Position numbers and translations under genes: made by a program. Positions 1,674 through 34,980 of a DNA stretch of 35,323 nt are shown in pieces. The notes beneath the pieces are model-generated. The model was not told the origin of the DNA and did no database searches. It saw only the letters and a list, made by a program, of their open reading frames with translations. Each line of letters starts with the position of its first letter. Within the stretch, counting starts at the first letter, position 1. The DNA comes from Paracamarosporium sp. OC-R06-R3 (Eukaryota; Ascomycota; Dothideomycetes; Pleosporales; Didymosphaeriaceae): positions 1 to 35,323 of the forward strand of contig JACVRA010000415.1 of assembly GCA_019828545.1 (NCBI GenBank), written 5' to 3'.

Positions 1674-1883
1674 CTAGGCCTTCGCCGCTACTATGACAAC
1701 ATCGTGGACCTCCACCAACTCGTTCTCAACAGCTTTCACGATAGCAACGGCATCAGGAGCCAAATAATCACACTATTCGGCCGCGGATAGTGCGATAGCG
1801 GCTCGCTTGAGTAGGTAGTTCAGGGCAAGGCGCTCGAGCCAGGCGTTGTCATTGGTGCGGAGAGCACGATAGCGCAGAAGGAC
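1674..1883 (-). pseudogene. Possible fragment of a decayed protein-coding gene
   Basis: Read on the minus strand from 1883, one frame gives protein-like sequence of about 69 residues (motifs LLRYRALRTNDNAWLERLAL, then AVAIVKAVENELVEVHDVV). An in-frame TAG at 1775-1773 interrupts it and another at 1676-1674 ends it. The helical, charged and hydrophobic pattern looks like real protein rather than noise. I cannot assign a family, no start or flanking exons are evident, and chance remains possible. Confidence 0.3.
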
Positions 1884-2450: not shown

Positions 2451-2470
2451 TATATATATATATATATATA
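2451..2470. repeat. (TA)10 microsatellite
   Basis: Ten uninterrupted TA units lie in the intergenic region about 120 nt beyond the 3' end of the 2OG-oxygenase gene. No function is implied; it is a likely length-polymorphic marker. Confidence 0.9.
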
Positions 2471-2586
2471 AAGACGTCTTGTTTCACGTATTCTTAGCTA
2501 TGTACAACGTTTGTACGCTTAGAACGTAGTGTTAATTTAAAATACGATCGTGATTCAACTCCTCTAGCGCCAAAGCCCACATTCGC

Positions 2587-3691: not shown

Positions 3692-5296
3692 GATTGCAGA
3701 TGTGAAGAGTGTGCGTGTCCCAGGCTTTGGAGGGTGAAATTGTCAAGGGTAGAGCAATAAAGATCAATTGGTGTTCAAATGTGAATGTAAGTTGATTCTG
3801 GTTGATCAGTAGTCTTCCCCAGCCGACTCCAGACATCTTAAATACTGTATCTAGTTTGTCCCTTTCACCACCTACTAAATGATAATCTCATACCCAATCC
3901 AGGAGCCTGATGGCTCAGCAAGGGTGACCGGACCACTGCCGGAATATCCCCGCTGTACCTGCACCCGTCCACTTTACTCCGTCAAAAAGTTGATTCCGAA
4001 GGAAGTTGGTTCCGCCATCAAGTCGCTCCACGATCGAGCCCGCTCCGCTGCCGAGATGTTTCCGCCATGAGGCTTACCCGTTCGAGAGGCCTCCGCCGTA
4101 CTCTTTACCACACTTAGCCCCTCGTCTCCGTTAGGCGAGCTCGTACCGCCTTCCCTCCGCAACGCCGTACTTTCCTGCCTCAAGTTCTATTTTGCTGATT
4201 ATAGAACGCTTGATAGACAAATAACAAAGACATTTGGCATCTGTCATTCTTTCAAGACAATACTTAGGTAAACCAGAAGAATACGATCTGCGCGTGTGGA
4301 ACCACGTCATCTATGGTTACCTATATCTCCCGGAGTTAAACCTGATGATGAGACCAGTATTAGCTATCCGCGAAAATGGTTCACTGCTCACACGATAGGG
4401 GTAAGTATAGCTTGTGCAACCTGCACGAATGTTATCTTGAAGATGTATCATGGTATCAACGCTGAAAATGCGGGGCCGCATGTAGCCGCGCGGAGATCTT
4501 GGCGCTTCTCCAGTATCGAGGCGAATTGTGCTGAAGCAAACCAATCACGAACGGCTTTATCATGTGCATTGAGGAACAGGGGAAGGGTTCTATGACGTGC
4601 ATGGTCTCCTAGGTTGTGGGGTCTACACTATGCCCCTCGGAATCGCCTGCCTCTTTGACTCGATACGAGGGCCCGATTCGCCGGACTTCATCTGGGTCTC
4701 CACCCATCTTTATCGAGAGAACTGATAAGCCGATGACATCCGTCTGGTAAATTCCTTGTGCAGTTGATTGAAAGGAGAATACATTTAAGAGCAGCTAGGT
4801 GTTGTGCACGGGTCCCGGCGATGCAGCAAGTATACATGCAAACTTAATAGCGTGCACGTTTCGAGTCCCATTGCCTTACTGTACACAAATTGGTGTCGTT
4901 ATGGGTCTCATCATCTATGGCGACTCTATATGGACTATTGTATGAAAAATAAGCATTTGCCCTTGAGACTCTTTACTCCGTGTCTGTATTGTCGATTTTT
5001 CTTTTTTCTTTTTTCCGCTTTTCTAGTTCGCCAGGCGAGGCCTTGAGTTCCGAGAGGCTTCTACCGGCATACTTCAAAATAAACTCGTCAAGAAATACCG
5101 CTCGAATCACCGGTACGACGAAGTGCGTACTTGAGCAGGAGGCCTGCGTTATCGCGACGCGACACAGAGGCAGGGAAGTAATCGAGAATCTCTAGATCGA
5201 GTGCATGCCGCTGAGCAAGGAACATCTTGAAGACATGTGGGAGGCACAAAAAGACTCCAAAATCACTATTCACGTATATGTCAGGCATTCAATCTT
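3692..5296. other. Gene-poor intergenic region
   Basis: About 1.6 kb without a supportable gene. Short open frames (3879-4070 +, 3974-4183 -, 4296-4595 +, 4804-5046 +, 5088-5288 -) show no domain, no plausible splicing and mostly overlap one another. The first 150 nt upstream of 3691 should hold the promoter of the 2OG oxygenase. Nothing else is recognised. Confidence 0.5.
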
Positions 5297-7017
5297 TTAG
5301 CCTTTGACGTCCCCAATACCAAGTTTAAACCCACCCACACAGCCGTACTGAAATAACCCATCTGGGTCGTATTTGCGACTCGTGTCCTGTACAAACTTCA
5401 TATTCTCTTCACCGTATCCTTCAAATAGCCTCTGCCAGCTTCCACAATAGTTCATGTAACGATGCCGATGACCGGTTCCATTCGCCGCAGCAAAAAAATC
5501 GATCAGCTCAATCATTTCTCGCGTCAGATTCTCCACCAACTCATCATCTTGACGTTTTAACTAGTTAACGGTGAAGCTGACAAGTATGAGTGGGTCTTCC
5601 ACTATATCATGTAGGCCGAGTGAATTAGCATCGCCCTTGTGCACCCAATCTGGGAGAATTGGCTGGAGAACGAGTGTCCAAGACATCCCCTCGATTTTCT
5701 CGCGCTTTATCAAAGCGATAGCACTTCTGTATGCGTCGTACGCTGCTTATATAGTTGCCGGATCATTTTTAATTGTCGTCATGCCAAAAACCTGACGTCA
5801 GCCAGGTGAATTGAGCGCGTTCATCTCGTCGCAGGCACTACCAAGCGTACGCACTTTACAAGTACTCCAGAGACGCCAGATAGACTTGAAGGACGACTTT
5901 TCCTAGCAGCTCGGCCACTTAGGCGGATTCTCTGCCGGTTTTGTGTATACAAGGTTTACTGCAATTGACTGGATGCCCAGATTCTATAAATAAGTAAAAT
6001 AGGCAATAGGACCTGAGGCACAGCTGTCGTATGTAGTGCTAGAGTCAACTGGGTTTGTTCTGTTTACGAAGTCATGGAACGCGGAGAGAACTTTAGAAGC
6101 TTGCCCAGAGGGCATATAGAGAAAGCAACTCCAAATGTTAGTAGCTGGAAAGCTACGAACAGTGATGCGGGCAACAATCCCAAAGTTGTTCCCGCCTCCC
6201 TTGAGAGCGCGCCATAGATCGAGGTTTGTGGATGCGGATGCCGTCGTGATGGAACCCGAGGCTAAGACGATATCGTAGCTAAGGATGTTGGAGCAAACCA
6301 AACCATACCTCTGCGAGAAGAATGAAACGCCGCCTTGTTTGGTTCCTGAATTAGGATTAAACAGCACGGATAAGTTGGCAACGGACTCACCTCCCAATAC
6401 CAAGCCACCTACGCCAACTGCGGAGTTCCTGCCACCCGGAACTGCAAGATGCTTTGTGTCTAAGACTTCGAAAACTTTCCCCATCTAGCCCCGGCTCCTA
6501 TGGTAACACTCTTACCATCCTGAGATGAAGTAACGTCAGAAAAGTGGCTCATGTCGATTAGTACGCCGTCCTCGATGCTTGCGGAGCGTGCTACCAGAGA
6601 ATAGCGAACAACCCTCCCGTGTCGGCTTGGTCACTGTCTTGAGTCGTCTATCTCCTTTCGTCGTATTCACCTTTGAGGATTGTGATCGCAGTGCTTAATC
6701 GGCCGATTGTGCCAGGGCGAATGACACACGAGGGCACTGCTTCACATTCTTGCTGGGCCCAATAAGTGTTCATTGATTTTTCCGAAGGCCTCAATGTCAA
6801 TCGGCAGAATAATGTCATATGGTAGGGCTGATGAAAGATGATTGACAAGCTGCTGTGCAGCTTTTGAAGAGCATCGAGCGGGAATGCGCTCGGTATACTT
6901 GTTGTCCTTCTCGACCGCCTGCGAGGCTTTGCGACGTAGCATGGCAAAAACGAACATAGAGAGAGTGGTGACGACGAATGCTACGATGCTAGATGGGGTA
7001 AACGAATCAACCGCCAT
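5297..7017 (-). pseudogene. Decayed FAD-linked oxidase (berberine-bridge-enzyme family)
   Basis: The whole family layout is visible on the minus strand but broken. A hydrophobic N-terminal anchor (7017 downward) is followed by YWAQQECEAVPSCVIRPGT, typical of the FAD-binding domain entrance. Next comes GAGARWGKV...VPGGRNSAVGVGGLVLGG (about 6370-6510), then LKGGGNNFGIV (about 6200), and the BBE C-terminus with RKYDPDGLFQYGCVGGFKL (about 5310-5385). From 6484 to 5297 one frame is held, yet stops occur at 5986-5984, 5905-5903, 5800-5798, 5749-5747 and 5563-5561. Upstream there are a frameshift near 6770, a stop near 6647, a short deletion near 6620 that removes the RSGGH segment (site of the FAD-linking His), and a one-base frameshift near 6480. 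A working enzyme from this copy is very unlikely. All five stops fit single C-to-T or G-to-A changes. Confidence 0.85.
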
Positions 7018-7510
7018 GGTAGACTAAAGTGAAATGCAGGTGGTGCGGATGCGACAGGGTGTAAACTTGCAGATAACTGCTGAGCCACGCAAAGGAGTAA
7101 GCACCTTCACGCTAGACTTGAATTCATGTCACCCACCCCGAGAATTTGTGGAATGGGTCACTTGTGATCCAGAACCGCCTTTATGGTTATGCTCTTTGAT
7201 AAAGTGAAAACTATTAGAGTTTTTTCAGCGAGGCCAATTGCCCTCATCACACACAGTAGTCTTACACTGTAACTTATACGCATAGTAAGCTACTTAGTCA
7301 AGTAAGCAACTCACTCTACTAAAGTCTTACTGAAAGATGCTAGTAGTCATCATATAATATATATAAAATCTTACGTTATAAGTTACCAGATAAAACACTT
7401 TAGTACCGTGGAAGAAATAGTCAAGTTGGCCGCAGTTCACTAACTATAGTAATCGCCTTCAGGCATTTCCTGATCAGAATCATGTATAATTGAAGCATTC
7501 ATGCTTTGGA
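7018..7510. other. Intergenic region downstream of the MFS transporter
   Basis: Moderately AT-rich sequence with repeated short TAAGCTACTTAGTCAAGTAAGC-like strings near 7285-7310 and no reading frame of note. It would hold the terminator of the transporter gene and the former promoter of the oxidase pseudogene. No further feature is seen. Confidence 0.5.
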
Positions 7511-9482
7511 TCATCGCTTCCAGAATCTCCTATACGATCCTACTCTCCGCTCGGCACTTCCTATCACACGACCTTCAACAGGCTGTTCCATCTCACGCAG
7601 TTTGTAGTTTTGCAAGAAATACGTCAATGGCACAATAGGTGCAGCTGCAACCAGTGCCCCGATAAGTAAAAGACGCATGGTCTCCTGATATGCGCGATTG
7701 ATCGCGTTGCGTGTCGGCGAGCCAGGCGGATATGCGATATAGTCCGAAGACGTGGTGATGTCGCCGAAGATAATCGTAGCATTTGTAACGGTCTCAGCAG
7801 GTAGATATTGTTGCAGCTTGCGCGGAATATATGTGCTCCAAATCGCTCCAGAAACAGCCGATCCCACAGCGCCTCCGACTTCCAACAACGTGAGCCAGAC
7901 GGTCGTGGCTGCGGCAACTTGTTGATGACTCGCGCTTGCTTGGACACCAAGCTGGACCGGGACGTTAAGAAAACCACCACCAAAGCCTATCACTATCTGT
8001 GTTCCCACGATCGTGGCGGTCGATGTGTTTTCGTCGCGGTATCGAAGCATAATACCCATGCCCAGTAGGTAGATACAGGATCCGACAGTGACGTAGTATT
8101 TATAGTGTCCAGTAAATTTAACCATGAGCGAGACGATGATGGACGATACGGTTGAACTCAACGAAAATACGCGCGTAATATTCCCTGCTTCGCTGATGGA
8201 TTTGTTTTGGACGATGCGGAGATAGGAGAAGAAGTAAGGGAAAACCGACATATAGAATGCCACTATATATATGGTTAGCGCGTATATTTCCATCCCTAAA
8301 GCTTCGAAAGAACAATCAGTAGGGCTTACTAAAGTACAAAAAGGCGATTAAAGTTGCTGCAATGACCGTCACGTTCTTGAATAAGTCGGGTGGGAAGAAG
8401 GCCTTTGGGGCCAGCTTTTTACTGGTTTCCCAGTAAGGAAAAGCTATTAGAAACACAACCCCAAAAACAAGCATGGCAATCATGCTCGAGTTGCTCCACT
8501 TGTCACTCGCACCAGGCGCTAACTACTTTAATTTTAACAGGGTATCTTGCAAGAATGACGTGTCAACTTACGGTGAGCGGCAGAAGGATGAGCGATACTG
8601 CTGTAGCAAGCAATAATAAACCGAAGATATCTAAGTCGTACCATAGATTTTCGAGAATTTGGAATGCAGTGTTACCTCTGAATGCTGTTGGGAATGCTTG
8701 CCCACGTCTTCTAGCGTTGTCTCTAGCTCTTCTCTGGTTTAAATAGAGACTTAATGCCAATGGACTAAAGCAAATCGGCAATGTGATCGCCCATATGCGG
8801 TAGCCCCAACGCCATGTTGTATCCTCGATTATTCTTGTGGCCAACTTGGGTCCTGCCCATACCATCCACAAGAATGGAATGTCGAACAGGGTGGAGAACA
8901 AAGCGCGATTAGACAAGTCGGTCGTATCAGCTACGAAGATCTGCTGTAAGATCTGAAGGCCATTGAATCCAGCTGCCCAGAAGATCTGCGCGGAAGCGAA
9001 TGTCTCGACGTTCTTCGATTGAGCCTGCTGAATGTACCCAATGGTATACAGGAAGATAGTAATGGCGAAGGACTCTAGTCGACCGAATACATCCGCAATC
9101 TTGCCCATTGGTGGCTTTATCACTGCACTGACAATACCTTGAATCACAACGACTGTGGAAACTAATGAGTGCTGCTGGAAAGTGCTTGTCGCGTATGGTG
9201 TCATAAGGTTGGTGACTTGCAACTCAAGAGACGTGACATTTGCTAACAAGAACAAGCTGTCGGGGTTAATCCACAGATGATTGTTCGAAGGAGGTCCACC
9301 TACGTGACATATGTGATGACAAGGGAAGCAGTTGTCCAAGTCCTGCTGACAGCTTCGATTCGCCTGACGCCAGCCTGTGCCTCTTCGTTCTCATCGGAGG
9401 CGCTATTGGGACTCATATCATTTGTACTTTGACTCTGATTGTCTTCCGCGTGTCTCTCAGCTAGTTGGATATCCCTCACCAT
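7511..9482 (-). CDS. Major facilitator superfamily transporter, siderophore-iron-transporter (SIT1) type
   Basis: Four exons, complement(join(7511..8262,8330..8522,8572..9256,9304..9482)), give 602 residues. Introns are 67, 49 and 47 nt. The last acceptor was set at 8263 because it uses a CTAAC branch site and gives LIAFLYFMAFYMSVFPYFF, a normal SIT helix. Family features: a charged hydrophilic N-terminus, ITYV at the first helix, LMTPYATSTF, KIADVFGRLESFAI (loop 2-3 MFS signature), FVADTTDLSNRALF, WRWGYRIWAI and LNQRRA. About 14 membrane helices are expected. Family members are proton-coupled importers of ferric siderophores at the plasma membrane or vesicles, although relatives move other compounds. 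It diverges from the kinase gene at 9992, sharing about 0.5 kb of promoter. No iron-regulator (GATA-type) site was firmly identified. Length is typical and the gene looks intact. Confidence 0.87.
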
Positions 9483-16756: not shown

Positions 16757-17914
16757 TTAAGACGCATTTTCGTGTAATTTCGCGTAAGCACCAGAAACGT
16801 CTTCCTGGTAAAGGCATTCTATGTTCACGATTACCCAAACACCAACCGCGATCAAGACAGGAAGACATTCAAGTGTGTAGAAGAACACTTCGTTATGTGC
16901 CAACATAAGCAAGTAGCCCGTGAAAAGCCCAGAAAGCTCAACGAGGCGGTAAGCAACTCTGATCAATATGGCTCCCACGCTGAAAAGTAAAGCGTAGGAT
17001 ATCAAGCGCCATCTTGTGGACCGCTGGTCTGGGGAGTCGAACGTTATTGTCTGGGGGATTTCAGCTTGTCTATCAGCCAGTTTCCTATGGAGGATAACTG
17101 TTATGACGAATATGTACACCATTACGATTTCCTGAATGCCGATGCCGACGAGGTACAACTGCAGCCCAAGCATCGCAGTGCTAGAGGCTCCCTTTGAGGC
17201 TGATGGTTGGTGTTTGGGAGCAATCAGGATACTGGCGACAAGTTGCTCGATTGCAAGAAGCATGACGAAGAGAAGGCCCCGCAAGAGAGCTTGATCTGTG
17301 ACGCCGACTATCTTGTCATCTGAAAAAAAGGATCTCATCAACTTAATAAGGACGGCGTAGTCCAACGCAGATACTACTGTGTACAGGAAGAGTAGTCAGT
17401 ATCAAAGTAGGCAAGAAGGTAGGCAGGAAGGCAGACAGAATTTGGAAAGGAGTTAGGGAAACCGAAAAGAACAGAAACAAGACTGACATATTGGGCAGAC
17501 CAAGACCAAAGTATCAGAGGAAGCCACAAACTCCGGCACTTGTTGATATCTCGTGCCGAAGGCGCGCAAAATGTACGCCGCCAAGAGGCATGTCGAAATG
17601 AGAGCCCCGGACCAAGACAGTAGGCGACCATTCCCCCATGATAACGCGTTTTCTTCTGGCAGCCGACCGCGACGATGACGAGTCGCGTGCATTATCATTA
17701 GCGCATATCCTACCAAGACTGCGGCTGCAGCGGTGGAAAAAATTAAGGCTGCGACGAAGGATGGGTAGTACGGCCGAGAAATATATCCGCAGGTCCCTGG
17801 CGGTACCCATCCGTTGGCATCAGGCCTTACAGTGGTTGTAGGGCAACCATTTGCCAATGGACTCTTCGAGGCCGCACCGGTCAAGGTCGGAGGGGTAGGA
17901 GCGAGCGAGGCCAT
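16757..17914 (-). CDS. RTA1-like seven-helix membrane protein
   Basis: Two exons, complement(join(16757..17373,17488..17914)), give 347 residues. The 114-nt intron (GTCAGT...CAGTAG) restores CPILSALDYAVLIKLM across the join. The N-terminal region ends with a lumenal CGYISRPYYPS-type start of helix 1, followed by about seven hydrophobic segments. Family-diagnostic parts sit near the end: RSTRWRLISYALLFSVGAIL, LIRVAYRLVELSGLFTGYLL and HNEVFFYTLECLPVLIAVGV, matching the R-x-x-x-R-x-x-E...HE-x-x-F-Y pattern of RTA1/lipid-translocating-exporter proteins. These fungal membrane proteins are linked to resistance to toxic lipophiles. It lies about 560 bp from a UstYa gene and in the same direction, so a resistance or export role for the peptide cluster is possible but unproven. 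The acceptor choice is the weakest part of the model. Confidence 0.8.
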
Positions 17915-18471
17915 GAAGTTCTGATTAGGGGAAAAGTATGAGATGACGACATCTGCTCAGCCCTATGCCTAGCAGTCAAGCGTGAAAGGGCTGAAAAAGG
18001 CGATGTCTGGTATCCACGAGACGGCCGGCGAGAGCATTGGGGATTATACGGAGCATTACTTTGGCCCCAGCGCCACAGTTCAGGTGACACTTGCCAAGCG
18101 CTTTAGCTCGCATGGGTGGAGATCCTTCGGGAGTGTGCGGGATGACAGAGCGACACCAATGTCTTGGAACCAGTGCTAGGACAACTACAACAGATATCGC
18201 TTCGAATCGCACTGGAGCTGGAAAGGCTTCAGGGGTTAGTGCAGAGCGTAGAGATAGGGCAACCCTATGATTGCTTATCATAATTATACTGATACTGCAG
18301 CTTTCAAACTAAGCCTACATCGTTCATCAAAGCCGTCTGGACCCAATTTTGAATTATTACAGAATTACAGCTGTACAAACCTCATTTCATTCTCCACACC
18401 GTGCAGGTGGTGTTCGCGGGCCACGATAGGTATGCCCTATGCAAGTGTCAATAAACTGCAAAATCGTCGTT
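17915..18471. other. Intergenic region between RTA1-like and UstYa-like genes
   Basis: About 560 nt between the start of the RTA1-like gene and the stop of the upstream UstYa-like gene, both on the minus strand. It should contain the RTA1 promoter and the UstYa terminator. Overlapping short frames here have no domains. Confidence 0.45.
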
Positions 18472-19428
18472 TTAGGGTAGAAATATCAGGGGGAACTTCT
18501 CACCTTCAGGCGTAGTAATCAATTTATCCTCTTCCATGAACGAATGCCGCCTCGTCCAATCCTGAACAGCATCCCAATTTACACAGGCCGAATCCACTGT
18601 GTTATTAGCAAACGCCACACCAGGCTTATCGGGGTTCCAAGCGATAGCCCTGACACCGAGATCCGGCTGGCAAATAAGTCTTTTCCGTAAAGTCTCGATG
18701 CAGTGATCTATATGCGGTGGGAAGTATTGCTCATCTTTCATGTCGTACTGCGCCGTGCGATTAGCTGTCAGATCCTGCGGGTTTGTGCAACCGATTCCCG
18801 CTACTTGGTGTCTAATGGAGTCTAGGCAGTGCAGGTGGTGGTAGACGTTCATTGAGACCCAGACGTCGCCAGAGTTATCATTTAGTGGGATGCTTTCGAG
18901 GTTCAAAGCATCTAGAGATGTTGATGGAACACGTATTGAGTAACCTGGATGCGTCTGTGGTCAGCGTACTAAGTCTCAAGGGGCAAGAATGTTATAATCA
19001 CCGTTCATGAGATCCATCCATCTAGCTGTCCTCTCTGAGGTCGGAAATCCTTGATATGGGCTCATATGCCCATGACCCTCTAGCTCGTGATGTGTAAGGG
19101 TCAATGGCTGGGAAGATATGGCTTCGAATGCTGGTGCTTGTTTACCATTTCTATCAGTTCTGCGGAACGTATCTGAGGGTGACTAGTACGAAGATAATCC
19201 AAGCTTACAAGGTACCATTGAGTATTGTGCGAGTTGATCATTGGCGCCCCGTGTACGTGCATTGTTGAAGAGCAAGCCAACACACAGTCCAGCAGTGAAG
19301 AAAACCACATTAATTATCAGCTGCTTGATGTTAAGCCCGCTGATCCAGATTTGACTATTGAAACTTCTCTGCAAGACGTCTTCGCCATCTTCTTCGCCGC
19401 GGAGTGGCTTGTACTTTTGGTTCGGCAT
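18472..19428 (-). CDS. UstYa-family (DUF3328) oxidase, RiPP cluster, copy 1
   Basis: Three exons, complement(join(18472..18944,19002..19136,19209..19428)), give 275 residues; introns are 72 and 57 nt. The layout is typical: a short cytosolic N-terminus, one membrane segment (about 36-54, INVVFFTAGLCVGLLF), then a lumenal domain. SPAFEAIS follows the first join, with GFPTSERTARWMDLMNGYSI in the middle. Both family-defining HxxHC motifs are present: HHLHC (154-158) and HIDHC (196-200). It ends with WTRRHSF and a short tail. UstYa and UstYb act in ustiloxin formation as oxidative cyclases that cross-link side chains in the precursor core; the motifs are thought to bind metal. The gene is divergent from the precursor gene, with about 0.7 kb between starts. 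An alternative acceptor 6 nt downstream (19130) would drop two residues. Intact and complete. Confidence 0.9.
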
Positions 19429-19923
19429 ATTCCGGATATCTAAAGCGAACAGGACGAACAGGACGAGAAATAAACAGAGTGCATAATGCGCCTAAAGCTC
19501 GGATCTCGTGTAAGGGCGACAATCGCCTGTTATCCTATCTCGGCTTGTCAGGTTATTTGCTACCTGAGCGGATTTCACGCATGGGCCGGTGTCGCTGAGC
19601 ATATAGCAGAGCCAAACCGCTGTTTCCTTGTTTCAGACTAAGAAAATGGTTTCCTAATTGGCGGATAGTGCTGATAAAGCGATGAATGTGATATACCTGA
19701 TTTGTCTGCCGATGGTGGGGCGGAAGCTCAGGGCAAAGAGTCCAAGATCTGGATTGTTCGTTGAGGCTGATGAGGGATGGGGCAGGAACGAAAGTGCGTG
19801 GACAAGACCGAGCCGCCGGTGAGATTGTCAAGAGTAGGTTGGATAAGGAAGGTGAGGTGGTTGCGTTTCCGTCAGGCCTACTTGGTGAGTTACCGTCAGC
19901 TTGGCGTCCCACCCGTTTCGCAT

Positions 19924-19943
19924 AGTGATCCTGAAGGATCACT
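19924..19943. promoter_or_regulatory. Perfect 9-2-9 palindrome, candidate operator
   Basis: AGTGATCCT and AGGATCACT are exact reverse complements separated by GA. The site is about 190 nt upstream of the precursor ATG and about 500 nt from the UstYa-like copy 1 ATG. Two-fold symmetry fits binding by a dimeric transcription factor, or a transcribed hairpin. The role is inferred from position and symmetry only. Confidence 0.5.
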
Positions 19944-20053
19944 GTACTCATACGCCAAGCATTTACACCACATCTTAGGTATCGATAACGTTAGCTTACA
20001 CGACGCCTACAGGGTGCGGGGTACTACCGGCCGTTTTGGAATATAGAATTGTG

Positions 20054-20060
20054 TATATAT
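20054..20060 (+). promoter_or_regulatory. TATA-like element of the precursor gene
   Basis: TATATAT lies 74 nt upstream of the precursor start codon, with pyrimidine-rich sequence between them. That spacing suits a core promoter with a short leader. No other strong TATA run lies closer to the ATG. Confidence 0.35.
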
Positions 20061-20133
20061 CGGGCCTTGCCTATCATAACCGTGATCCTCGTCTTGTTCT
20101 TTGTCTCATACCACCTACCCTTCGGTTCTCAAT

Positions 20134-20613
20134 ATGCGTGTCTCCACTATCTCTACCATCCTTGGGCTCGCTGCTGGCATCGCCAGCGCGGCCCCCGTTC
20201 AACCTAAGGAGGTCCAGAACCGTGAAGCAGACCCTCAGTGGTACGACCTTACCTACATCGACAAGCGCAAGGAGGATGAGAAACGCAAGGCCGACCCTCA
20301 GTGGTATGACCTTACCTACATCGACAAGCGCAAGGAGGATGAGAAACGCAAGGCCAACCCTCAGTGGTATGACCTTACCTACATCGACAAGGCCAAGCGC
20401 GAGGAGGCCGACAAGAAGCGCGACGCCGAGGCGCAGTGGTATGATCTTACCTACATCGACAAGCGCAGCGAGGAGGAGAAGAAGCGCAAGGCCGACCCTC
20501 AATGGTACGACCTTACCTACATCGACAAGCGCAAGGAGGATGAGAAACGCAAGGCTGACCCTCAATGGTATGACCTTACCTACATCGACAAGCGTGCTGC
20601 GGAAAAGCAGTAA
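20134..20613 (+). CDS. Six-repeat RiPP precursor, Kex2-processed, dikaritin/KEP type
   Basis: A single exon encodes 159 residues. The start at 20134 is chosen over the in-frame ATG at 20101 because it begins directly with a secretion signal (MRVSTISTILGLAAGIASA, cleavage likely before APV). Six copies of QWYDLTYIDK follow, starting at residues 35, 56, 77, 101, 123 and 144, each preceded by acidic or Ala residues. Five copies continue as DKR; copy 3 reads IDKAKR. Lys-Arg sites bracket every core except at the very ends, so Kex2-like cleavage plus basic-residue trimming would release peptides such as KADPQWYDLTYID and short KEDE spacers. Phomopsin precursors also place Ile-Asp before Lys-Arg. 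Trp36, Tyr37 and Tyr41 (first copy) are natural targets for oxidative cross-linking by UstYa-type enzymes. The core differs from the ustiloxin, phomopsin, asperipin and victorin cores known to me. Product and bioactivity unknown. Confidence 0.92.
   Translation: MRVSTISTILGLAAGIASAAPVQPKEVQNREADPQWYDLTYIDKRKEDEKRKADPQWYDLTYIDKRKEDEKRKANPQWYDLTYIDKAKREEADKKRDAEAQWYDLTYIDKRSEEEKKRKADPQWYDLTYIDKRKEDEKRKADPQWYDLTYIDKRAAEKQ
20221..20601 (+). repeat. Tandem 63-72-nt coding repeats of the precursor
   Basis: Six units with core starts at 20236, 20299, 20362, 20434, 20500 and 20563 have periods of 63, 63, 72, 66 and 63 nt. The 30-nt cores differ only at third positions (CAG/CAA, TAC/TAT, GAC/GAT). Spacers of units 3 and 4 are the most divergent and longest. 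The open long frames on other strands through this interval (20036-20620 + and 20074-20694 -) are by-products of the repeat. Confidence 0.95.
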
Positions 20614-21174: not shown

Positions 21175-22175
21175 ATGCAACCACTGGACGAGCGGATGAG
21201 TTTTGACGACTCGGGCAGCGCGCAAGACACCCAGGATTACCAAACATCGAGGTCATCGCATAGCCAAGATGTTGATACGGAAAAGTATCTTTTGTTGGGT
21301 GAAGGCAGCGTAAAAAAGCGCTGGGGCTCTTGGAGGAGTTCCCGTTCTACCAAAGTCCTTGCTTCTGTGACGGTTCTAAACGTCGTCTTATTTTTTATAT
21401 CGATAGTGATACTATCTTTATCGAACAGGGCGAACCGCCTGTCCGACCAGGACTACTGGACAGCTACATCCTACTACTGTACATACATCCCCCCTAACGG
21501 AGTAAGAAAGACCAGCCGCTAACTTTGGACTGGAAAATCGCAGCCCCAGTATTCGACCGTTTCAAAATTCCCAAGCACACCAGAGTCACAAATGGCACAT
21601 TCTGGGACACAGAACCCCCTTCGATTTGGCGCGTTCGCACCGGAGCCGAAGCAGACGCAGCATGGGAAGCGATTGGAAGCAACATCGCACCCATAATCAT
21701 AACCTCCGACGACGTAGTTGCGCTCGGCAAAGATCCCACCGTAGCCGTCAAAGCACCTCCCGAACTCAACCTGGGCTCAGACGCGTACATAGCAGGCATG
21801 GATGTGTTTCACCACCTACACTGTCTGGACAAGCTCCGCCGAGAGATCTCGTACGCGCACTATCATGAGGCGGAGGAAGGGCCTAGCCCCGGGTCGAAAT
21901 TACACAAAGCGCATATCGATCATTGTATTGATGTGCTTGCGCAGGCGTTGAGGTGTACAGGGAGTGTTGACATGGTTACTTTCAATTGGGTCGAAGGACA
22001 TCGGATGCCGCAGCCGGATTTCAACAACAATAAGGTTTGTCGGGATTTTGAGGCGTTGAGGGGGTGGACGGTGGAAAATGGGGTCGATAGTGAAGGTTTC
22101 TTTAAAGCTGCCGATAAGCCGCCGCCTGGAGCTGTTATTGTACCTGAATTCCGCCCGAATCATCCGGGTCGATGA
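21175..22175 (+). CDS. UstYa-family (DUF3328) oxidase, RiPP cluster, copy 2
   Basis: Two exons, join(21175..21478,21544..22175), give 311 residues. The 65-nt intron (GTACAT...CGCTAAC...CGCAG) was chosen because it restores TSYYSPVFDRFKIP, the usual family sequence after the membrane anchor. Segments: hydrophilic N-terminus with KYLLLGE, membrane helix (about 61-83), NGTFWDTEPPSIWR, then HHLHC (191-195) and HIDHC (225-229), and RGWTVENGVD near the end. Both HxxHC metal-site motifs are intact. The NGTFWDTEPPSIWR segment and longer lumenal part put it in a different subgroup from copy 1, as UstYa and UstYb differ within the ustiloxin cluster. It follows the precursor gene in the same direction with about 0.56 kb between. 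Likely role: oxidative cyclisation of the released core in the secretory pathway. A later in-frame ATG (residue 8) is possible. Confidence 0.9.
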
Positions 22176-25572: not shown

Positions 25573-26575
25573 TGGCAGGGAGTGGCGGCCGATGAGCGAA
25601 GAACGGCGGTGCTGTCTGCGGTGAGAGGGAGAGGTGGAGAGATGTTCCCGACGCGTCTGTCCTGCGATGTAAGGGACGCGTCGAGACAACAGTTCGCGCG
25701 GTCACGTTGCCATTTCAAAGCCTAGCGAGAGAGCCTGAAGCTCGTATGGTGGCTGGGGGGGTTGTGGCAAGGTATGAACAGTGCAGAACCAACCCGCGGT
25801 GGGTAGGAGGTTTTGAATGGAAGCGGCAAGGAAAGCACAGTTGTGCGCACGATCAGGCAACCACGTTCCATAGCGCTCTTCTCTGTTTGGCCTTCTTGCT
25901 TTCCTCGTAGAGATTCCGCGTTCACCGATGCGCAATCTGAGATAGACTCTCATGATGTGCCAATGTGCATCACAAGATGGATTGCCTGGGAATGCGGAAC
26001 AGCAAGGAATTCGAGCAACGCATATCAGAAACTCTCATTATGTACTCCAAATGATTTGTAACTATTACAATGAATCCAGATGGTCGTGTGAGTGCTCAAG
26101 CGCAATGTGATGTAACCGGTGGTGCAAGACAACCCTGTTATCGCAGTGCTACGGTCCGATACAAACCTCTAGATACTGCGCGCTGTGTGTTTTGCAGTTC
26201 ACGATTCGAGATTGAGTAACACTGAGCGTGTGCTGTCCATGAGAGTGCCACAAACTGGTGACGAATGCCCGGCGCTTTATGAGGCCGAATACGGTTTTTA
26301 CGGGCCAAACGGCGCTAAGCTGCAACATCCAATGAAAATCAAAGCAGATCCACCACCCGCACTTTTTCCATTACATGTCAAGCATATGGCCAGCATTGGC
26401 CTTCCTTTCCGGGTGATCTGCAGAGAACCTTCATAAGTGCGACGCTGGTGTCTCCGCCTTGCAATAATCGGCAGTGTTAACGTGAATGGATGCGTGTACG
26501 TACCAGGATCTGCTTAAATAAAGCCACACGGAAACCACATGTCATCTCTAGAACATACCTGCGACAACCACAATC
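25573..26575. promoter_or_regulatory. Divergent intergenic region, GNAT-ankyrin / P450
   Basis: About 1 kb between divergent start codons holds the promoters of both genes. Short frames (25702-25953 -, 25813-26061 +, 26185-26436 +) have no domains. No operator is recognised, and the palindrome of the RiPP promoter is not found here. Confidence 0.45.
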
Positions 26576-28183
26576 ATGGCCGGCACTATTCAAGCCGTTA
26601 TCTCCCAGGCTCGCGCACTTGACTGGATAACGCTCAAGGGCATCGCCCTCGTGCTCGGCCTCATCATCATCTTCCAAATTTCTCACGCCTTACTCTGCGC
26701 AATTTACAACATCTATTTTCACCCGCTTTGCAAATACCCTGGACCCAAGTCATGGGCAGCTTTCGAAGTTGCGCGAACCATCTCACGCGTACAAGGTCAT
26801 CTCGATTTCGCGATCGTAGAGGAGCATCGGAAACATGGTGAAGTTGTGCGCGTTGGCGTGAACGAACTCTCTTTCATACATCCTAGCGCATGGAAAGACA
26901 TCTACGGCCATGGGCACGCCGAGCTACCGAAATACTTTCCGCCGAAAACGATCAACAAGAACCAAATCATCGCCGCAAAAAGCGGTGACCATTTTCGCAT
27001 GCGCAGGGCTTTTCTACCGGCATTTTCTGATAAAGCGTTGGCGCAGCAGGAATCGCTCATGCGCGTGTACATCGATCTGCTCATTCAGCGGCTCTCAGAG
27101 TGCACTCAGTCTGGCGAATCTGCAGACATGACAAAATGGTTTAACTTGACTACGTTCGATCTTATCGCTGATTTGACGTTTGGAAAGTCGCTTGGTGGTC
27201 TAGAGTCAGGAGAATCCAACAAATGGACGCAGAAGATCGAGACAATGTTGAGGCTCATGCCTGCTCTTATGCTTCTTACAAGCTTTCCGCTCCTAGCTTC
27301 CATTCTGAACTTGTTGTTCGGTCGGAAAATGGAAGAAGCGCGACAGAAGCACTTCAACTATGCGGCGTCGCTCGCCATGTCTCGTCTGCAAGGAAAAGAG
27401 CAGGCCGATCGAGGGGACTTCATGGATTACATTTTGCGTTCGCGTGGGGAAGCGCACCAGGTTACGGATGACGAGCTCGTACACAATGCCGACCTCTTTA
27501 TGCTCGCAGGCTCTGAAACAACGGCAACTCTTCTTCTAGGTGTGACTTACTATCTTCTCAAGAATCCGAACGCGTACCGCAAAGTCACACAAGAAGTTCG
27601 GACGGCTTTTGAAAATCCTCGGGATATCACTTTCAAGGAAGCCACTCAACGCTTACCTTACATGGTAGCCTGTTTGAACGAAGCATTGCGCATATTTCCA
27701 TCGATTCCTCTAGCTTTATTCCGTATCACGAATCCCGGACAAATGACACCGATTGCTGGTCACATAATACCGCCTGATGTATGTATCTCTTCTTTCCCAC
27801 CATGCCTCGTTTTCGGCTATTAAAGCTTACTCCACCAGACCCGCGTCGGCGTTCACCAGCTCTCAGCATACCACTCCCCTCTTAACTTCCACGACCCGCA
27901 ATCATTTCACCCGGAGCGATGGCTTCCAGAAACTTATAACGATCCTTCATCACCATTTCACAATGACCGGCGCGAGGTACACAAGCCGTTCTCTTTCGGT
28001 CCGCGTGATTGTATTGGACGAAACCTTGCGTTCCATGAGATGCGCCTCATCCTTGCTATGGTGCTCTGGAATTTTGATCTCGAGCTAGACGAAGGTATGG
28101 AGCAATGGCATTTTCAGAAGATCTTTGGCATCTGGTCGAAACCACCGCTTCGGGTGCGGCTCTGGAAAAGGAAGGTGGATTAG
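26576..28183 (+). CDS. Cytochrome P450 monooxygenase, microsomal
   Basis: Two exons, join(26576..27778,27839..28183), give 515 residues; the 60-nt intron (GTATGT...CACCAG) is phase 0 and follows GHIIPPD. There is an N-terminal membrane anchor (about 21-46), a proline hinge (KYPGPKSWAAF), the I-helix AGSETT (311-316), the ExxR pair (E369, R372) and the PERW meander. The heme loop is FSFGPRDCIGRNLAF with proximal Cys459. All catalytic landmarks are present and length is normal. The pattern resembles the fungal CYP65/isotrichodermin-C15-hydroxylase-like group common in secondary metabolism. It lies 4.4 kb from UstYa-like copy 2 with one unrelated-looking gene between, so cluster membership is possible but weak. 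It converges on the STAND gene, with 95 bp between stops. Confidence 0.9.
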
Positions 28184-28278: not shown

Positions 28279-31200
28279 CTAGTCTTCCACATCAATGTCC
28301 CGGAGTCCACCTTGCTTGAGCCAGTACCTTTCCCACGCCTTGGGCCACCTTTCCTCCTTCATCTCCTTGAGCCACTCCTGCACTGTAAATGGCTCCTTTC
28401 CATCGACGCGAATGACTCCGTCTTTAACTCCTTTCCAACCTTTCATCGGGCCCTTGATGAAGCGATGATCCGGACTACAGAATTGCCTCCAAGCCTTATC
28501 TTCTTCTTCAGGGGTCGAAGCACGCTTCTTATCATGACATTCTGTGCACAGGTCTGTGTTAGGACATATGAGACACAGGTAGAAGGGCTGTTCCCATTTC
28601 TCCATCGTGGTTCCGCAATCACCATCACAGCCCATCGGATATAGTTCCCCTACAAGATCCTGGTCGTCGTCTTCCTCGGATTCTTCGTCATCGTCTGGAG
28701 AGCCATCTACTGTGACATCATCCGTCGTGATGGGATCGGCAGCTTCGGTTTCAGCAGTGTGAGGTTCGGTCGTAGATTCGTCATTCGTCTCGTCGTTGTC
28801 CGTATCTGCCGATCCTTCTGAGTCGCCATCTTCGTCAATCTTTTTGTTTAGTTGTTCAAGGGAAGCCGCATGCACTTCCTTATCGAGAACAGAGAACTGA
28901 GCAGACAAGGCTACTCTCGCATCGAATTCCAGACCTTCTAGGGAACTGAGTACTTTGGCCAGCAGTCGAAGCGCGGGGGAATCGTTGAAGAAGTCCTCAT
29001 CACCTAATCCTTTGATGCAGGTTTCAAAGATCTCGTTCATGTATTTTTGGTACTCACGAGTCGGGCCCATGATACGCAACATGTTAGCATAGAGCATGCC
29101 AACGTGTGACTCAGAAAAGCTGTCTTCTCCACGTGTTCCGGGTAGATGCTTGAGTTCTTCCATAAACTCCTCTTTACGGGCGGGGTCATCTGAAGATGAG
29201 AATTGGGCAAAAATGATACCTGCAAGCCGGAGACGCGTGTCCGAGATTTCTTCGTCGTAAATCTCACTGTTGGTAGCATCGATTTTGGGCTGCATGGTGA
29301 GGGCCGATCGCAAGGTGGCTTTCGCTTTCTCGGTGTCCCGGACGACAGAGGAGTAGAAATCCGTCAGCGCGTACTGAAGGTTGAACGCTACCAACGAACG
29401 TGGGGACAATTTCCTTCCGTACTTATTCAGCCATTCCACGACGAGATCAGTCTCTCCCGTCAGTTTAGAAGCACGGAACATCCTGCCCAGAGCCTCCAAA
29501 TCTGCATAGGGCAACAGATTGTAATCGAACCATAGCTGGAATTCTCGGTCTTTCCAAGTTTTGAGGGCATCCATAAAGCGATGACCATCCGGGTCACGAT
29601 CTTCGTCGAAGAGCTGGGCAATGTCTTCCAGCACCCATCCATTGAGGCATCCTCCCCATTCATCAAAAGTCAGCTTGCGGGATTCCTCGTAGGCTTCGAA
29701 TGCCTCATCCTGTTTGTCAAGTTCTGCCAGATAGCTCGCCTTAATACGGAACACCTAGATGAAGAAGCAGAGTCAGTTCTTGCCACACATATGTTTTGAG
29801 TCGATGTTTACTTACACTCCAAAGCATTACATCTGGGCGATTGTTCCATAGATATACCTCTCTGAATGGTGGAGGTGGGTCCGCTTTTAACTTGAGGTTG
29901 TATGCTTGGTATGTTGATATGGCAGATTCGATTGTCTCCAAGGCTTTAGGACAATCTTCCATTGCCTTGTGCATGCCAGATAAATTGAGTAGAGTTCCAC
30001 CTCTTTCTAGCTCATCGTCTTTTGTCAAGTCGAGATTTTCTGTAAGATAGGACATGGCAGTTTGTTGCAGCTCCTTTCGTCGCGCTTCTGAGCACGCTTC
30101 CATGTTTGCATAAAATAGTGTCACTCCTACTGCTCTCTTCCCAGGTGTATCGAGATCTGCTTCAAAATACTGAGCCACACTCAGGATCTTTTGCAAAGGA
30201 TCTGCGGCTGAATCTTCAAGTCGACCACACTGGTAAAGTCAGACTCGAAGCTTTAAATTGAGATTTCAGCAAACTCACAATTCTTGTGGTGGCTTCAGCA
30301 TTCTTGTAAGCTTGCGTAATGCTTAATTGGGACCTTCGCATCAACCAGTTCTTGACATGAGCCCCTGATAAGTGCCAAAGGACATGATGTTCATCTGTGA
30401 TAAGGCTAGAGGCCCACGCCTTCACCGGCGCAGCGATCGCGGAATCGGGAAGTTCGGCAGCCCTGTTTGCCCATGGAAGTACCCTATCATACCACGGTGT
30501 GGGCTCTCCCTCTTTTGACTCGGGATAAAGCTCAGATGTATCAGCAAAATGGTCAAGCACCCTTGAGATACACTTCTCGTCTGTTAAAATTGAATGAAGG
30601 CATTCTAGGGTCTGGCCGATCTCAATATCGGTAGCTGTTTCGATTTCAAGCTCGTCGAAATGCTCATACCAGTACTTCACCGCATAGCTTCGTAGTTCGG
30701 GTCCGCGTGCATTCTTTGTCAGATCAGTGGATTTTCGTAGAACCTCGAGGCACATGGACAAGATGATTGTATGCGCAGCGCGTGCTGGAGTGCGCAGCTC
30801 TTCGTTTCCGTGCTGTTCGACGCTTACAGCTCTGAAGTATTGGCGAAGTGATCGCTCCTGGAATGTCAATGGCGCCTTTCTGTACTCATCAACATTTATG
30901 ACTGCTTCATCGCCGTGGTCTTCATTTTCGTCTTCCTTGGTTTCTTCATGGTTGTCTTCTTCGGTTCGCGAGAGCGGAGAGAGCTCCAGGATCCTGTTTG
31001 CAGTGTTAGTTCTACTATCAACAGATGCTCTAGGGTCAATTACCTTGCTGATCTCCCAATGATCTCATCTTCGATATCAAAATCATCATCAGTAATAGTG
31101 AGTGCCACAAGTTCTGAAGCCTCTGCCAAACTCAACGGTCTCTTAGAGAAGGCGAGCCAAGCAAAAAGCTTCTTCAGTGCCTCATACTGTTCCTTCGACC

Positions 31201-33236
31201 TCCCACGACGACACTCCTCAAGCATGATCTTGTATAGTTCGTGCAGATCAGTAGGCATGTGCTCGAGATCCTTCAGAACGGCACCTTCGCGACCAATATA
31301 AGAGAGTCGTCTCAACATATGATCCGCATACAGCATGCTATCAGCTTGTCTACCTACTTTTCGCCGAATCACCTTCTTGGCCGCTGTGCTAAACTTCTTT
31401 AGCCGAGGGAATGTACCACTGTTTAGCCTATCGCGGATGAAGATGTTAATGTCGTGCGTTATCTTAGTTTTCGAGACGTCGATGATGAGAGGATCAGATT
31501 TTTCAATAAATTCCTGTTCTGGTCGACTGGATACTAGTACGCGGATCCGTGATTTTGACCTTTTCAAGTCCGCAAGAAAGAGTCGAAAAACTTGCAGCTG
31601 CTCTTCGGGAAGCTCGTCGAGCCCGTCGAATACTATGTATAGTACGTGGTCTTGCAAGCCATCAGCGCTATGATCAGCGGCATTGTCTCCGTAGGCGGAG
31701 AAGAAGAATCGCTGCCAGGGAGTGGTTTCCGTTATGTCGTTCTCTTCGTCTGCTAGCTTAGTACCCATGAATTTGGCATATTTCATGTCTGATTCAGCCA
31801 CTTGAAGTGCGGTGCATGCGATAGCATTTTGCACAGACTGTAGGCAAGCGATTTCTTCTCTGAAATGGAAGTAAGCGATGGCGCTTCCGTCAGCCTGGTT
31901 TAGCAATTTCTGTACACCAGAAAAAGACAGGAACGACTTTCCAGCTCCGTCTGCACCCCTTACCCACAGCAAAGGGTTTTCACCGGTCGTCCATTGTTCC
32001 CAAGCCGTCTCAGCGAAGAACCACTCAGCGGTCCCAGCCACGAACTCACTCTTGTAGTCTTGATGCAATGCAGCATTTTCCTTTTGTGCAGCGCCCCAAT
32101 TCAGGAATTTGTTCTTCTCATCATCGAAGAAAGTCTTCAAAGGCCATAGGGCCTGAGCTTTCTTGTCGGTGATATCTCCCATACCACTTGGCTTGTTTGC
32201 CTGCTTGCGCCTTTCTGCATTTTCCGGTCCAGGGCGGCTTTCTGTATCTTTCTTGTTACGTGCATTAGCCTTTGCTATAGCGCTCATGGCATCCATGAGG
32301 TTATCTTCAAGCTCTTGCATTCTGTCCATGGTCATTACATGATTCATACGAAGCTCCATCTTGATCTCCAAATTACTCTCAAATATCTTGTAGACATCTT
32401 CGCTTTGTTCTTCTCGCCAGGTGCGAAGCATCGCATCTAGCTTGTCGGTTTTTTCATCAATGTGAATCGTAACATCTTGCGTGCTTCTGATGGCTGCATG
32501 GTTTGCGAAGTTGATAGTCTTGTCAAGTTCTTCAATCGATGATTGCATGAGCGCATATGCACCGATAAGCTTTGGATCTTCTGGTTCCCAAAGAGCTTCA
32601 AAGAACATCTCTGAGAACAGTCAGTCTTCGGCTTCTTATTTCACATCTATAACCTGGCTTACTGATGCGTGCGCTCTTCCTGTTTACCATATCCTGGACA
32701 ATAGCGTAAACGCTTAGCTGAGCTGAAAAGACTCGAACGATCGCTTTCCCAAGAGGCCCATCACTACATTTGCTTCCTTCTATAATGGACAGTCTCTCAA
32801 AAAAGCGACTCGACAGGGCCAGAAACTGTTCAATCTTGTTCATGTCACTCTGAACACCCATGAATGCCCCCAATACGCGCCCGCAAGCAGCAAATACCAA
32901 GCTGACCGGCATCGCTGGAGGGAAAACCGAGGCGGCCTCTCCGACCATGGAAACCCCATCCAAGCACTTCTGCATACAGTCCAGATGCTGTCCAATCGAG
33001 TGTCGGGCTTTGCTGGCCTTGTCTTTTTTATGCCGGAAATTCATGAATTTGTCACCCTTCTTTTCTGTTGCATCCATGATCTCAGTGATATTTTGTGCCA
33101 CGCGCTCAGTGCTTTGAGCACTCAACTCAGATATATTCGCTTTTGTTGTTCGCTCATACTCTCTCACAGCCTTGCTCCATAACGATGCGAGGTCCGTCGC
33201 TTCTTCCGGTGGAAGATCTATATTTCGTACCACCAT
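28279..33236 (-). CDS. STAND protein: Goodbye-like N-terminus, NACHT, TPR-like repeats, C-terminal zinc finger
   Basis: Five exons, complement(join(28279..29754,29816..30229,30279..30993,31044..32610,32663..33236)), give 1581 residues; introns are 61, 49, 50 and 52 nt. The N-terminus (1-190) reads like the fungal Goodbye domain (LWSKAVREYERTT, CMQKCLDGVSMVGEAASVFP). The NACHT module has Walker A GADGAGKS (410-417) and Walker B YIVFDGLDEL (about 516-525). Helical repeats follow, consistent with TPR-type sensing. An acidic Asp/Glu-rich linker (about 1395-1455) leads to a Cys/His cluster (1466-1520: CDGDC, CLIC, CTEC, SPDH) like a ZZ-type zinc finger. Family knowledge: STAND/NLR-like proteins act in fungal self/non-self recognition and programmed cell death; the finger may bind a ligand. 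All exon joins preserve frame and it appears intact. The start at 33236 (MVVRNIDLPP) excludes a basic, unconserved-looking upstream stretch. Confidence 0.87.
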
Positions 33237-34980
33237 TGTGAACAATGAAAATATGTGTAAGGAAGAAGTGACCGAGGAAACGAGGGGTTCCCTCTCATAA
33301 ATGTCCAGATGCGTAAGACGAAGGCCAAAACAGGGATCAGCCTTACTGGCGGCCAGCCACAAGCTTCAGCTACAGCGACGGACTTGGCGCTAGAGCAATT
33401 AAGGCGGGGTGAGTAACACACCATGGCACAAAAATAGGCTAGTTCAGCGCTTCATATCATGGCTTTACCTAGATCGTCGAATGGGTTCGGTGAGGCGCCA
33501 ATTTCGGGCTTGACGAGTGTTGTTGTGGTGTTTTCGCCCCCAAGCTCTCCACATTAAAGCCATTGTTGCCTTCTACGCCTTCCCAAGGCCCGACAATTGC
33601 CACGCTGGGTCGTGGAAAAATAGGCGGGGTAATATGCGGTGACCGTAAAACGTGCTACTGATGCGTAGATAATGCTGCAACAATAGGCTTGCAGCTTGCA
33701 CGGCATAAGGAGCGTGTTTCACTCATGGATATAATGCAAGCAATACTGACGGGTATTTATTCGATTCTTTCTTGGAGATGATGGGTTTAAAAAACAACAA
33801 GACGGAAAGTGATGAGTACGCAACGTTATAGAATGGTGGGAGGGCAATTGGGTGGTAAGGCGTGAAAACACAACGACCCGTGATGCGTGGAGCAAGAAGT
33901 CTTCCGATACACGGAGATACTAGCTAGCTGAAACACACTGCAACCTCGATCGCCATGAGCATTTTCTAACTAGCGATTGTTTCTTAGTGTCACTCACGAA
34001 TCACTTCGATAGACGCTCTCAAAGATAAGTGGTTGAAGTATTACCAGCATCGGTTTCGACTATATACCGATGAAGGAGATCGGTTTTTACAAAGCTGGAC
34101 AAGAAAACCCTCGTAAATGCAGATCTCATGGTCATAAGCTCTGAGAATAGATAAGCCTAGGAGTACATTCAGCAAGGCCTGCAGTGCTTTGGCGAGGAGT
34201 CGCTAAATGAAGCGAAGCTTGAAATTAAGGGAAAGTCTCAATCTGTTGGCATATTCAGTAGAGGCGAGCACTCTTGAAATTAGATAGGAATAACAATCAA
34301 AGAGATTGGAAGTAAACGAGTTGGTTGTAACTCAAGACTAAGGGAACTGTGCTGAGGTAGGAATATATCCAAATACTTGGTCAAGAGTTATCAGTACGCA
34401 GGTCGGAGAACAAGTCCAAGTATAAGAATACATTTTAATAACAGTTCCAGGCTGTGGAGTGTTACAGCTTCAGTACTACCGACGTTACCGAAACAACGCG
34501 TTTGTTTTTTCTATTTCGGAGTTAAATTCACTTTGGTATTTCTCAACACATTTTTCCTGCTACGCTTTTTCTCGTTTCTCATACGATTAGCTCGCGAACA
34601 GTAAAGACAATCGATTTTATCTTCGATTGCACAGGGGTAATTTGGGTCTTGTATCAGCCGCCCAAGGGACATGAACAGTCTAAGCTGTTTATCCTTCTAA
34701 TGTCAAGGATACCGAGCTATTGAACTGGCATGGGCATTGATTGAGCTTGGTTCAGCACAAATGATTCGGAATGACTATGAAGACGAGGGTCCTCAAGGAT
34801 ATGCTGCGACGCTCGTTATACTCTGACTGCTCATTCATGTTAACAACGGACGATATTCGACCTGTTCAAGACACTTCGCGATCCAGCACTTATAGGAGGT
34901 AATATTATTCTGTTAAAAAATGCGACGAATGTAACACAACTAGTCTAAGCCGACTCTTCTATCTTACGGTTTAGGTTAAA
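33237..34980. other. Gene-free region upstream of the STAND gene
   Basis: About 1.7 kb with no supportable gene. The first few hundred bases should hold the STAND promoter. A frame at 34377-34604 (+) ends in a hydrophobic Phe-rich stretch from T-rich DNA and has no domain. No tRNA was recognised. Confidence 0.45.

What the first reader, a model, noticed from the sequence alone, without database searches (positions are those of the whole stretch)
20134..20613. Probable new ribosomal cyclic-peptide precursor with core QWYDLTYID
Seen: a signal peptide, six near-identical Trp/Tyr-rich cores, and dibasic sites between them. Established: dikaritin-type fungal RiPPs (ustiloxin, phomopsin, asperipin) use multi-core, Kex2-cut precursors next to UstYa-family genes. 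Inferred: the core is cyclised by the flanking UstYa proteins. The core motif does not match cores I know, and it carries one Trp and two Tyr that could make ether or carbon cross-links.
Basis: partly seen in the sequence, partly recalled or inferred. Interest (0 to 1): 0.95.

Follow-up and report, generated by a model that had tools for sequence, protein, structure and literature searches.

The report
Fungal repeat-peptide precursor between UstYa genes
A fungal gene encodes a secreted protein that carries the same nine-residue peptide six times and sits between two genes for UstYa-family enzymes, so it very probably makes a small modified, likely ring-closed, peptide of a known class whose product has not been identified here.

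Summary
Window 20134-20613 (+) encodes a 159-residue protein with a signal-peptide-like start and six exact QWYDLTYID copies. Each of the five spacers has two KR sites, and each core is preceded by two [x-Ala][x-Pro/Ala] dipeptides. The three variable core bases are all synonymous. The gene lies between two UstYa (PF11807) genes: UstYa1 head-to-head, UstYa2 in tandem.

The same genome gives 75 UstYa matches. Of 14 UstYa loci examined, 9 have a repeat precursor, each with its own core (the window is one, and one was found with bias). In 9 of 9 the precursor is head-to-head with a UstYa gene, 0.9-2.6 kb away. Control loci gave 0 of 10, on far less DNA. Two KR-repeat arrays lie on contigs without UstYa.

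Best reading: a dikaritin-type RiPP precursor (like those of ustiloxin, phomopsin and asperipin), cross-linked by UstYa1/UstYa2, cut by Kex2/Kex1 and trimmed by a dipeptidyl peptidase. Cross-linking is inferred. Novelty of the core could not be tested: all ten paper calls failed, the protein database was off, and no other fungal genome was searchable. New member of a known kind.

The parts
20134..20613 (+). Precursor gene, 159 aa, six QWYDLTYID cores
   Evidence: repeat array
20134..20193 (+). Signal-peptide-like N-terminus (MRVSTISTILGLAAGIASAA)
   Evidence: Read by eye from the translation; cleavage site not predicted by a tool
20236..20262 (+). Core 1, preceded by NR-EA-DP, followed by KR
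20299..20325 (+). Core 2, preceded by KR-KA-DP, followed by KR
20362..20388 (+). Core 3, preceded by KR-KA-NP, followed by KAKR
20434..20460 (+). Core 4, preceded by KR-DA-EA, followed by KR
20500..20526 (+). Core 5, preceded by KR-KA-DP, followed by KR
20563..20589 (+). Core 6, preceded by KR-KA-DP, followed by KR
18472..19428 (-). UstYa1, UstYa-family gene, head-to-head with the precursor; about three exons, the end of intron 1 uncertain; HHLHC and HIDHC motifs, N-terminal hydrophobic stretch
   Evidence: PF11807 E 1.2e-21 on the last exon, genome search, splice trials
21175..22175 (+). UstYa2, UstYa-family gene, tandem and downstream; exons 21175-21478 and 21544-22175; HHLHC and HIDHC motifs, N-terminal hydrophobic stretch
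   Evidence: PF11807 E 6.2e-48, best UstYa match of the genome, spliced frame open
19429..20133 (.). Intergenic region shared by UstYa1 and the precursor, a possible two-way promoter
   Evidence: Head-to-head layout; promoter function inferred
16757..17956 (-). RTA1-like membrane protein gene, neighbour of UstYa1; membership in the cluster uncertain
   Evidence: PF04479 E 6.7e-18 on 16757-17395; 17453-17956 had no Pfam match and is joined to it by position only
26552..28183 (+). Cytochrome P450 gene; membership in the cluster uncertain
   Evidence: PF00067 E 8e-45 and 8.2e-22

Best explanation
The gene is the multi-core precursor of a dikaritin-type fungal RiPP. Shown in sequence: a signal-peptide-like start, six identical nonapeptide cores, two KR sites in every spacer, two [x-Ala][x-Pro/Ala] dipeptides directly before every core, and UstYa-family genes on both sides. 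Inferred: the precursor enters the secretory pathway; membrane-anchored UstYa1 and UstYa2 oxidise side chains within the cores (one Trp and two Tyr are candidates) to make one or two cross-links; Kex2 cuts after KR, a Kex1-like carboxypeptidase removes KR, and a Ste13-like dipeptidyl aminopeptidase removes KA-DP or DA-EA. This leaves QWYDLTYID, perhaps with pyroglutamate at its start, up to six per chain; copies 2, 4, 5 and 6 have exact ends on both sides.
For: Precursor anatomy and synonymous-only core variation. UstYa genes 0.86 and 0.96 kb away with the paired HxxHC motif. Same-genome precedent: 9 of 14 examined UstYa loci hold a repeat precursor by a fixed criterion, against 0 of 10 control loci (9 distinct places, 42 kb against 254 kb) and 0 in 3 shuffles. 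Head-to-head with a UstYa gene in 9 of 9. The six loci with a precursor and 10 kb held on each side all have it under 2.3 kb from UstYa; uniform null about 1.5e-4. All nine cores contain an aromatic residue.
Against: No chemical, transcript or protein evidence. 5 of 14 UstYa loci had no precursor by the criterion. Two KR-xA-xA/P arrays (C17, C81) lie on contigs without any UstYa match, so this spacer pattern alone does not imply UstYa. The control loci cover far less DNA than the UstYa loci. No tyrosinase, methyltransferase or peptidase was found among the window ORFs given to Pfam (not every ORF was given). The core was not compared with other fungi.
Confidence: 0.82

Rival explanations
1. 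A linear secreted signalling peptide, pheromone-like: Kex2, Kex1 and a Ste13-like peptidase release unmodified QWYDLTYID, and the UstYa neighbours act on something else.
For: The KR plus x-Ala/x-Pro spacers match alpha-factor-type processing (recalled), 6 of 6 copies. Arrays with this spacer pattern also occur on contigs without UstYa matches (C17, C81).
Against: UstYa genes on both sides and the same precursor-UstYa pairing at eight other loci, head-to-head each time. No Cys in the precursor, unlike the recalled alpha-pheromone consensus of filamentous ascomycetes.
Confidence: 0.1
2. A secreted structural or surface repeat protein that is not cut into peptides.
For: Short secreted tandem-repeat protein; charged spacers.
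Against: Two KR sites in each of five spacers and trimming-type dipeptides before each core; no Cys; UstYa neighbours and same-genome precedent.
Confidence: 0.05
3. A decayed or silent cluster: precursor and UstYa genes remain, but no product is made.
For: No peptidase or methyltransferase among the window ORFs given to Pfam. The contig ends about 20 kb to the left and 15 kb to the right of the precursor, so companions could not be sought further.
Against: The precursor is open and its core is free of non-synonymous change. UstYa2 reads through with one plausible intron, and UstYa1 does with two introns, the first uncertain. Asperipin's cluster works with few enzymes (recalled).
Confidence: 0.03

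Closest known systems
Ustiloxin pathway (UstA precursor with UstYa/UstYb), Aspergillus flavus; recalled, not checked here
   Same: Signal peptide, repeated cores with KR sites, two UstYa-family genes beside the precursor
   Different: Core YAIG/YVIG there, QWYDLTYID here; tyrosinase, methyltransferase and peptidase genes of that cluster were not found among the window ORFs scanned
Phomopsin pathway (PhomA precursor, core YVIPID); recalled, not checked here
   Same: Multi-core Kex2-type precursor with UstYa-family genes; core likewise ends in Ile-Asp before KR
   Different: The core here is longer and has a Trp and two Tyr
Asperipin-2a pathway (AprA precursor, core FYYTGY, AprY); recalled, not checked here
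   Same: Small cluster; several aromatic residues in the core that UstYa-type enzymes can join
   Different: Two UstYa genes here, only about 30% identical to each other over the matched part; Trp in the core
Yeast alpha-factor precursor and filamentous alpha-pheromone precursors; recalled
   Same: KR followed by x-Ala/x-Pro dipeptides before each copy
   Different: UstYa genes on both sides; no Cys; peptide unrelated to those recalled
Eight other repeat precursors of the same genome
   Same: KR-separated repeats, head-to-head with a UstYa gene within 2.7 kb; signal-peptide-like starts at the six whose start I read
   Different: Each has its own core; four of the six starts are cut from the repeats by a stop in frame, taken as an intron, whereas the window gene needs none

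Membership tests
Dikaritin-type fungal RiPP | Precursor with secretion signal | tested here: met
   MRVSTISTILGLAAGIASAAPVQP, by eye; no predictor run
Dikaritin-type fungal RiPP | Several near-identical cores separated by Kex2 sites | tested here: met
   Six exact cores, two KR in each of five spacers
Dikaritin-type fungal RiPP | UstYa-family (DUF3328) gene beside the precursor | tested here: met
   Two, PF11807 E 6.2e-48 and 1.2e-21
Dikaritin-type fungal RiPP | UstYa proteins with the paired HxxHC motif and an N-terminal membrane stretch | tested here: met
   HHLHC and HIDHC in both; hydrophobic stretch by eye
Dikaritin-type fungal RiPP | Aromatic residue in the core able to take part in the cross-link | tested here: met
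   One Trp, two Tyr
Dikaritin-type fungal RiPP | Oxidatively cross-linked (macrocyclic) product | not testable with these tools
   Needs LC-MS/MS and NMR
Dikaritin-type fungal RiPP | Further tailoring genes (tyrosinase, methyltransferase, P450, peptidase), variable between clusters | tested here: inconclusive
   A P450 6 kb away and an RTA1-like gene next to UstYa1; no tyrosinase, methyltransferase or peptidase among the ORFs scanned
Alpha-pheromone precursor | KR plus x-Ala/x-Pro spacers | tested here: met
   6 of 6 copies have [xA][xP/A]; 5 of 6 are preceded by KR, copy 1 by NR
Alpha-pheromone precursor | Mature peptide with paired Cys and terminal Trp (recalled consensus of filamentous ascomycetes) | tested here: not met
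   No Cys in the precursor; core ends in Asp

The most novel reading that the evidence does not exclude
The locus makes a Trp-containing dikaritin in which two distantly related UstYa enzymes (about 30% identical) each make a different bond, one of them through the Trp of a Trp-Tyr pair. Trp-Tyr recurs in the cores of two other UstYa-linked precursors of this genome (TEFAPWYRATNILPASD; [ND]WY[TSA]DSA), which would define a Trp-Tyr subclass of UstYa products in a fungus with at least nine such precursors.
Probability: 0.25. Interest if true: 0.7.

Novelty: new member of a known kind. Interest (0 to 1): 0.5.

Why it matters
It gives a defined core with candidate masses for a targeted LC-MS/MS and gene-removal test. 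More broadly, one genome shows nine UstYa-linked repeat precursors with different cores among 14 loci examined, each head-to-head with a UstYa gene. That layout could serve as a search rule for such clusters, and the set offers enzyme-core pairs for asking which residues UstYa enzymes join. I found no solved structure related to UstYa2 by sequence or by fold.

Tried and rejected
Abhydrolase_2 for the precursor and odd Pfam matches of other repeat ORFs (Apidaecin, RNase_T, TGL and others): rejected as repeat artefacts, since no single stretch passed. First UstYa2 splice choice (intron 21502-21543) gave a broken frame; replaced by 21479-21543. The AlphaFold2 model of the UstYa2 domain (mean pLDDT 69.4, pTM 0.69) had 0 PDB matches with E at or below 0.001; the UstYa profile gave one row near chance (4u09, E 0.033). 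The P450 and sugar-transporter searches were meant to give control loci; only the sugar-transporter loci were cut out, and 2 of those 10 overlap. Alpha-pheromone reading: rejected for lack of Cys. Nothing in print could be checked: the paper search failed, and paper reading. What I say of ustiloxin, phomopsin, asperipin, alpha-factor, alpha-pheromones, Kex2, Kex1 and Ste13 is recalled. I make no claim that the core is absent from print.

Full report
Observation. The ORF at 20134-20613 (+) is 159 residues long. It begins MRVSTISTILGLAAGIASAAPVQPKEVQNREADP and then carries six copies of QWYDLTYID. The spacers are KRKEDEKRKADP, KRKEDEKRKANP, KAKREEADKKRDAEA, KRSEEEKKRKADP and KRKEDEKRKADP, and the tail is KRAAEKQ. 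Tandem Repeats Finder reports period 63, 5.6 copies, 20230-20594. Copies 2, 4, 5 and 6 have exact ends on both sides.

Coding evidence. Among the six cores, 3 of 27 bases vary, all synonymously. In the other two sense frames the same bases give five different peptides each. Of the three antisense frames, one is invariant but holds a stop in every copy. Homogenisation between copies could also keep the cores alike, so this supports selection on the peptide without proving it.

Processing. Every core is preceded by two dipeptides of the form [x-Ala][x-Pro or Ala]: EADP, KADP, KANP, DAEA, KADP, KADP (6 of 6). That is the substrate pattern of Ste13-type dipeptidyl aminopeptidases (recalled). It places the mature N-terminus at Gln, which could cyclise to pyroglutamate; the C-terminus would be Asp after Kex2 and Kex1. 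This is inference from sequence.

Neighbours. UstYa1 (18472-19428, -; PF11807 E 1.2e-21) and UstYa2 (21175-22175, +; E 6.2e-48, the best UstYa match of the genome) flank the precursor. Both have an N-terminal hydrophobic stretch (by eye) and the motif pair HHLHC and HIDHC. They are about 30% identical over the matched part. The end of UstYa1's first intron is uncertain. Further out are an RTA1-like gene (16757-17956, -), a P450 (26552-28183, +), and a block at 483-9390 (-) with HAD, 2OG-Fe(II) oxygenase and MFS matches and an FAD_binding_4 match below its cut-off; a protein kinase lies between that block and the precursor. I do not claim these as cluster members. The window is the whole contig C200 (35,323 bases), so the cluster cannot be followed further.

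Same-genome comparison. The genome (43.1 Mb, 337 contigs) gives 75 UstYa matches, counted exon by exon. Searched with the precursor, it gave the gene itself and three weak matches (E 0.011-0.047), which fall in two other repeat precursors beside UstYa genes. I then examined 14 UstYa loci: the window; the ten next-best scoring loci, about 10 kb each side; two chosen for several UstYa matches (9 kb and 6.5 kb held); and one found through the precursor search and so biased. The criterion was an identical 6-mer at least three times, with KR or RR between at least two successive pairs, in a stop-to-stop ORF of 50 or more residues. 9 of 14 loci have such an ORF (8 of 13 without the biased one), against 0 of 10 sugar-transporter loci (two of which overlap) and 0 in three shuffles. 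The controls cover 42 kb against 254 kb, so the count alone is a weak comparison.

Distance and orientation are stronger. All 9 lie 0.86-2.6 kb from the nearest UstYa match, and the six with 10 kb held on each side all lie under 2.3 kb (uniform null about 1.5e-4). In 9 of 9 the precursor is head-to-head with a UstYa gene. Independent random orientations would give this about 4e-6; the window counts through UstYa1, since its UstYa2 is tandem. Common descent of the pairs would make the loci non-independent.

Other precursors. Cores seen: QWYDLTYID, RTNFEIDTILDVN, QYHGKNVVKI, ATYAPLVYVGGL, [ND]WY[TSA]DSA, NTRVNGSQNYTGPGNG, DDIWLW, TEFAPWYRATNILPASD and AAPAYVWAS. Their exact ends are my reading. 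Signal-peptide-like starts were seen by eye at six: C260:144.8k, C302, C42 and C260:245k, C163 and C260:36k. At the first four a stop in the same frame separates start and repeats, which I take as an intron. No clear start was read for C110 and C54.

Results against. Five of 14 UstYa loci had no precursor by the criterion: C76, C317, C148, C38 and C175. C76 does hold a Cys-containing repeat that misses the criterion. A genome-wide pattern search for KR-[KNED]A-[KNED][AP] gave 132 places against 65 for the reversed pattern; 100 places were listed and C200 was not among them. Five arrays of three or more appear in that list: C54, C110 and C163 beside UstYa genes, and C17 and C81 on contigs without any UstYa match. 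I could not read the last two; they may be pheromone or other Kex2-type precursors. So the spacer pattern alone does not imply UstYa linkage.

UstYa structure. An AlphaFold2 model of the UstYa2 domain from 15 same-genome sequences (mean pLDDT 69.4, pTM 0.69) puts the two HxxHC motifs on its two long helices (residues 86-110 and 118-136) and has 0 PDB matches with E at or below 0.001. By sequence UstYa2 has no PDB relative up to E 1, and the profile gives one row near chance. This neither supports nor refutes a mechanism.

Conclusion. By the sequence-level features tested, the precursor belongs with dikaritin-type fungal RiPPs; the set of tailoring genes is inconclusive. Cyclisation, the residues joined, cluster borders and novelty of the core are untested. 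All ten calls to the paper library failed, the protein database was switched off, and no other fungal genome was searchable here.

Noticed in passing
G000 C260:144762-145124, C302:142105-142470, C110:72551-72823, C54:20451-21200, C42:16266-16649, C260:36068-36928, C163:3-521, C260:245429-246043: Eight further KR-separated repeat ORFs with other cores, each head-to-head with a UstYa gene.
   Followed up: partly
L014:2123-2572 (+), C76 near a UstYa gene: A Cys-containing repeat (about four copies around CTRDLEARNCAWSKYV) near a UstYa gene, without KR between most copies; it missed the precursor criterion.
   Followed up: no
G000 C17:151004-151209 (+) and C81:727365-727531 (-): Arrays of four and five KR-xA-xA/P motifs on contigs without any UstYa match; possibly pheromone or other Kex2-type precursors. 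They could not be read.
   Followed up: no
G000 C110, upstream of 72551: Two further KR-preceded repeats (around TLNTRVGPATNVCYGDWCTT, with Cys) in another frame upstream of the NTRVNGSQNYTGPGNG repeats, perhaps separate exons of one precursor.
   Followed up: no
L011:796-1416 (-), beside the [ND]WY[TSA]DSA precursor: An ORF with HLDHC and HTIHC motifs in UstYa-like spacing but with no Pfam match; perhaps a diverged relative.
   Followed up: no
window 31040-33365 (-): STAND/NLR-like gene with Goodbye (PF17109) and NPHP3_N (PF24883) matches in adjoining ORFs.
   Followed up: no
window 483-9390 (-): Co-directional HAD, 2OG-Fe(II) oxygenase and MFS genes plus an FAD_binding_4 match below cut-off; perhaps a separate metabolite cluster.
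   Followed up: no
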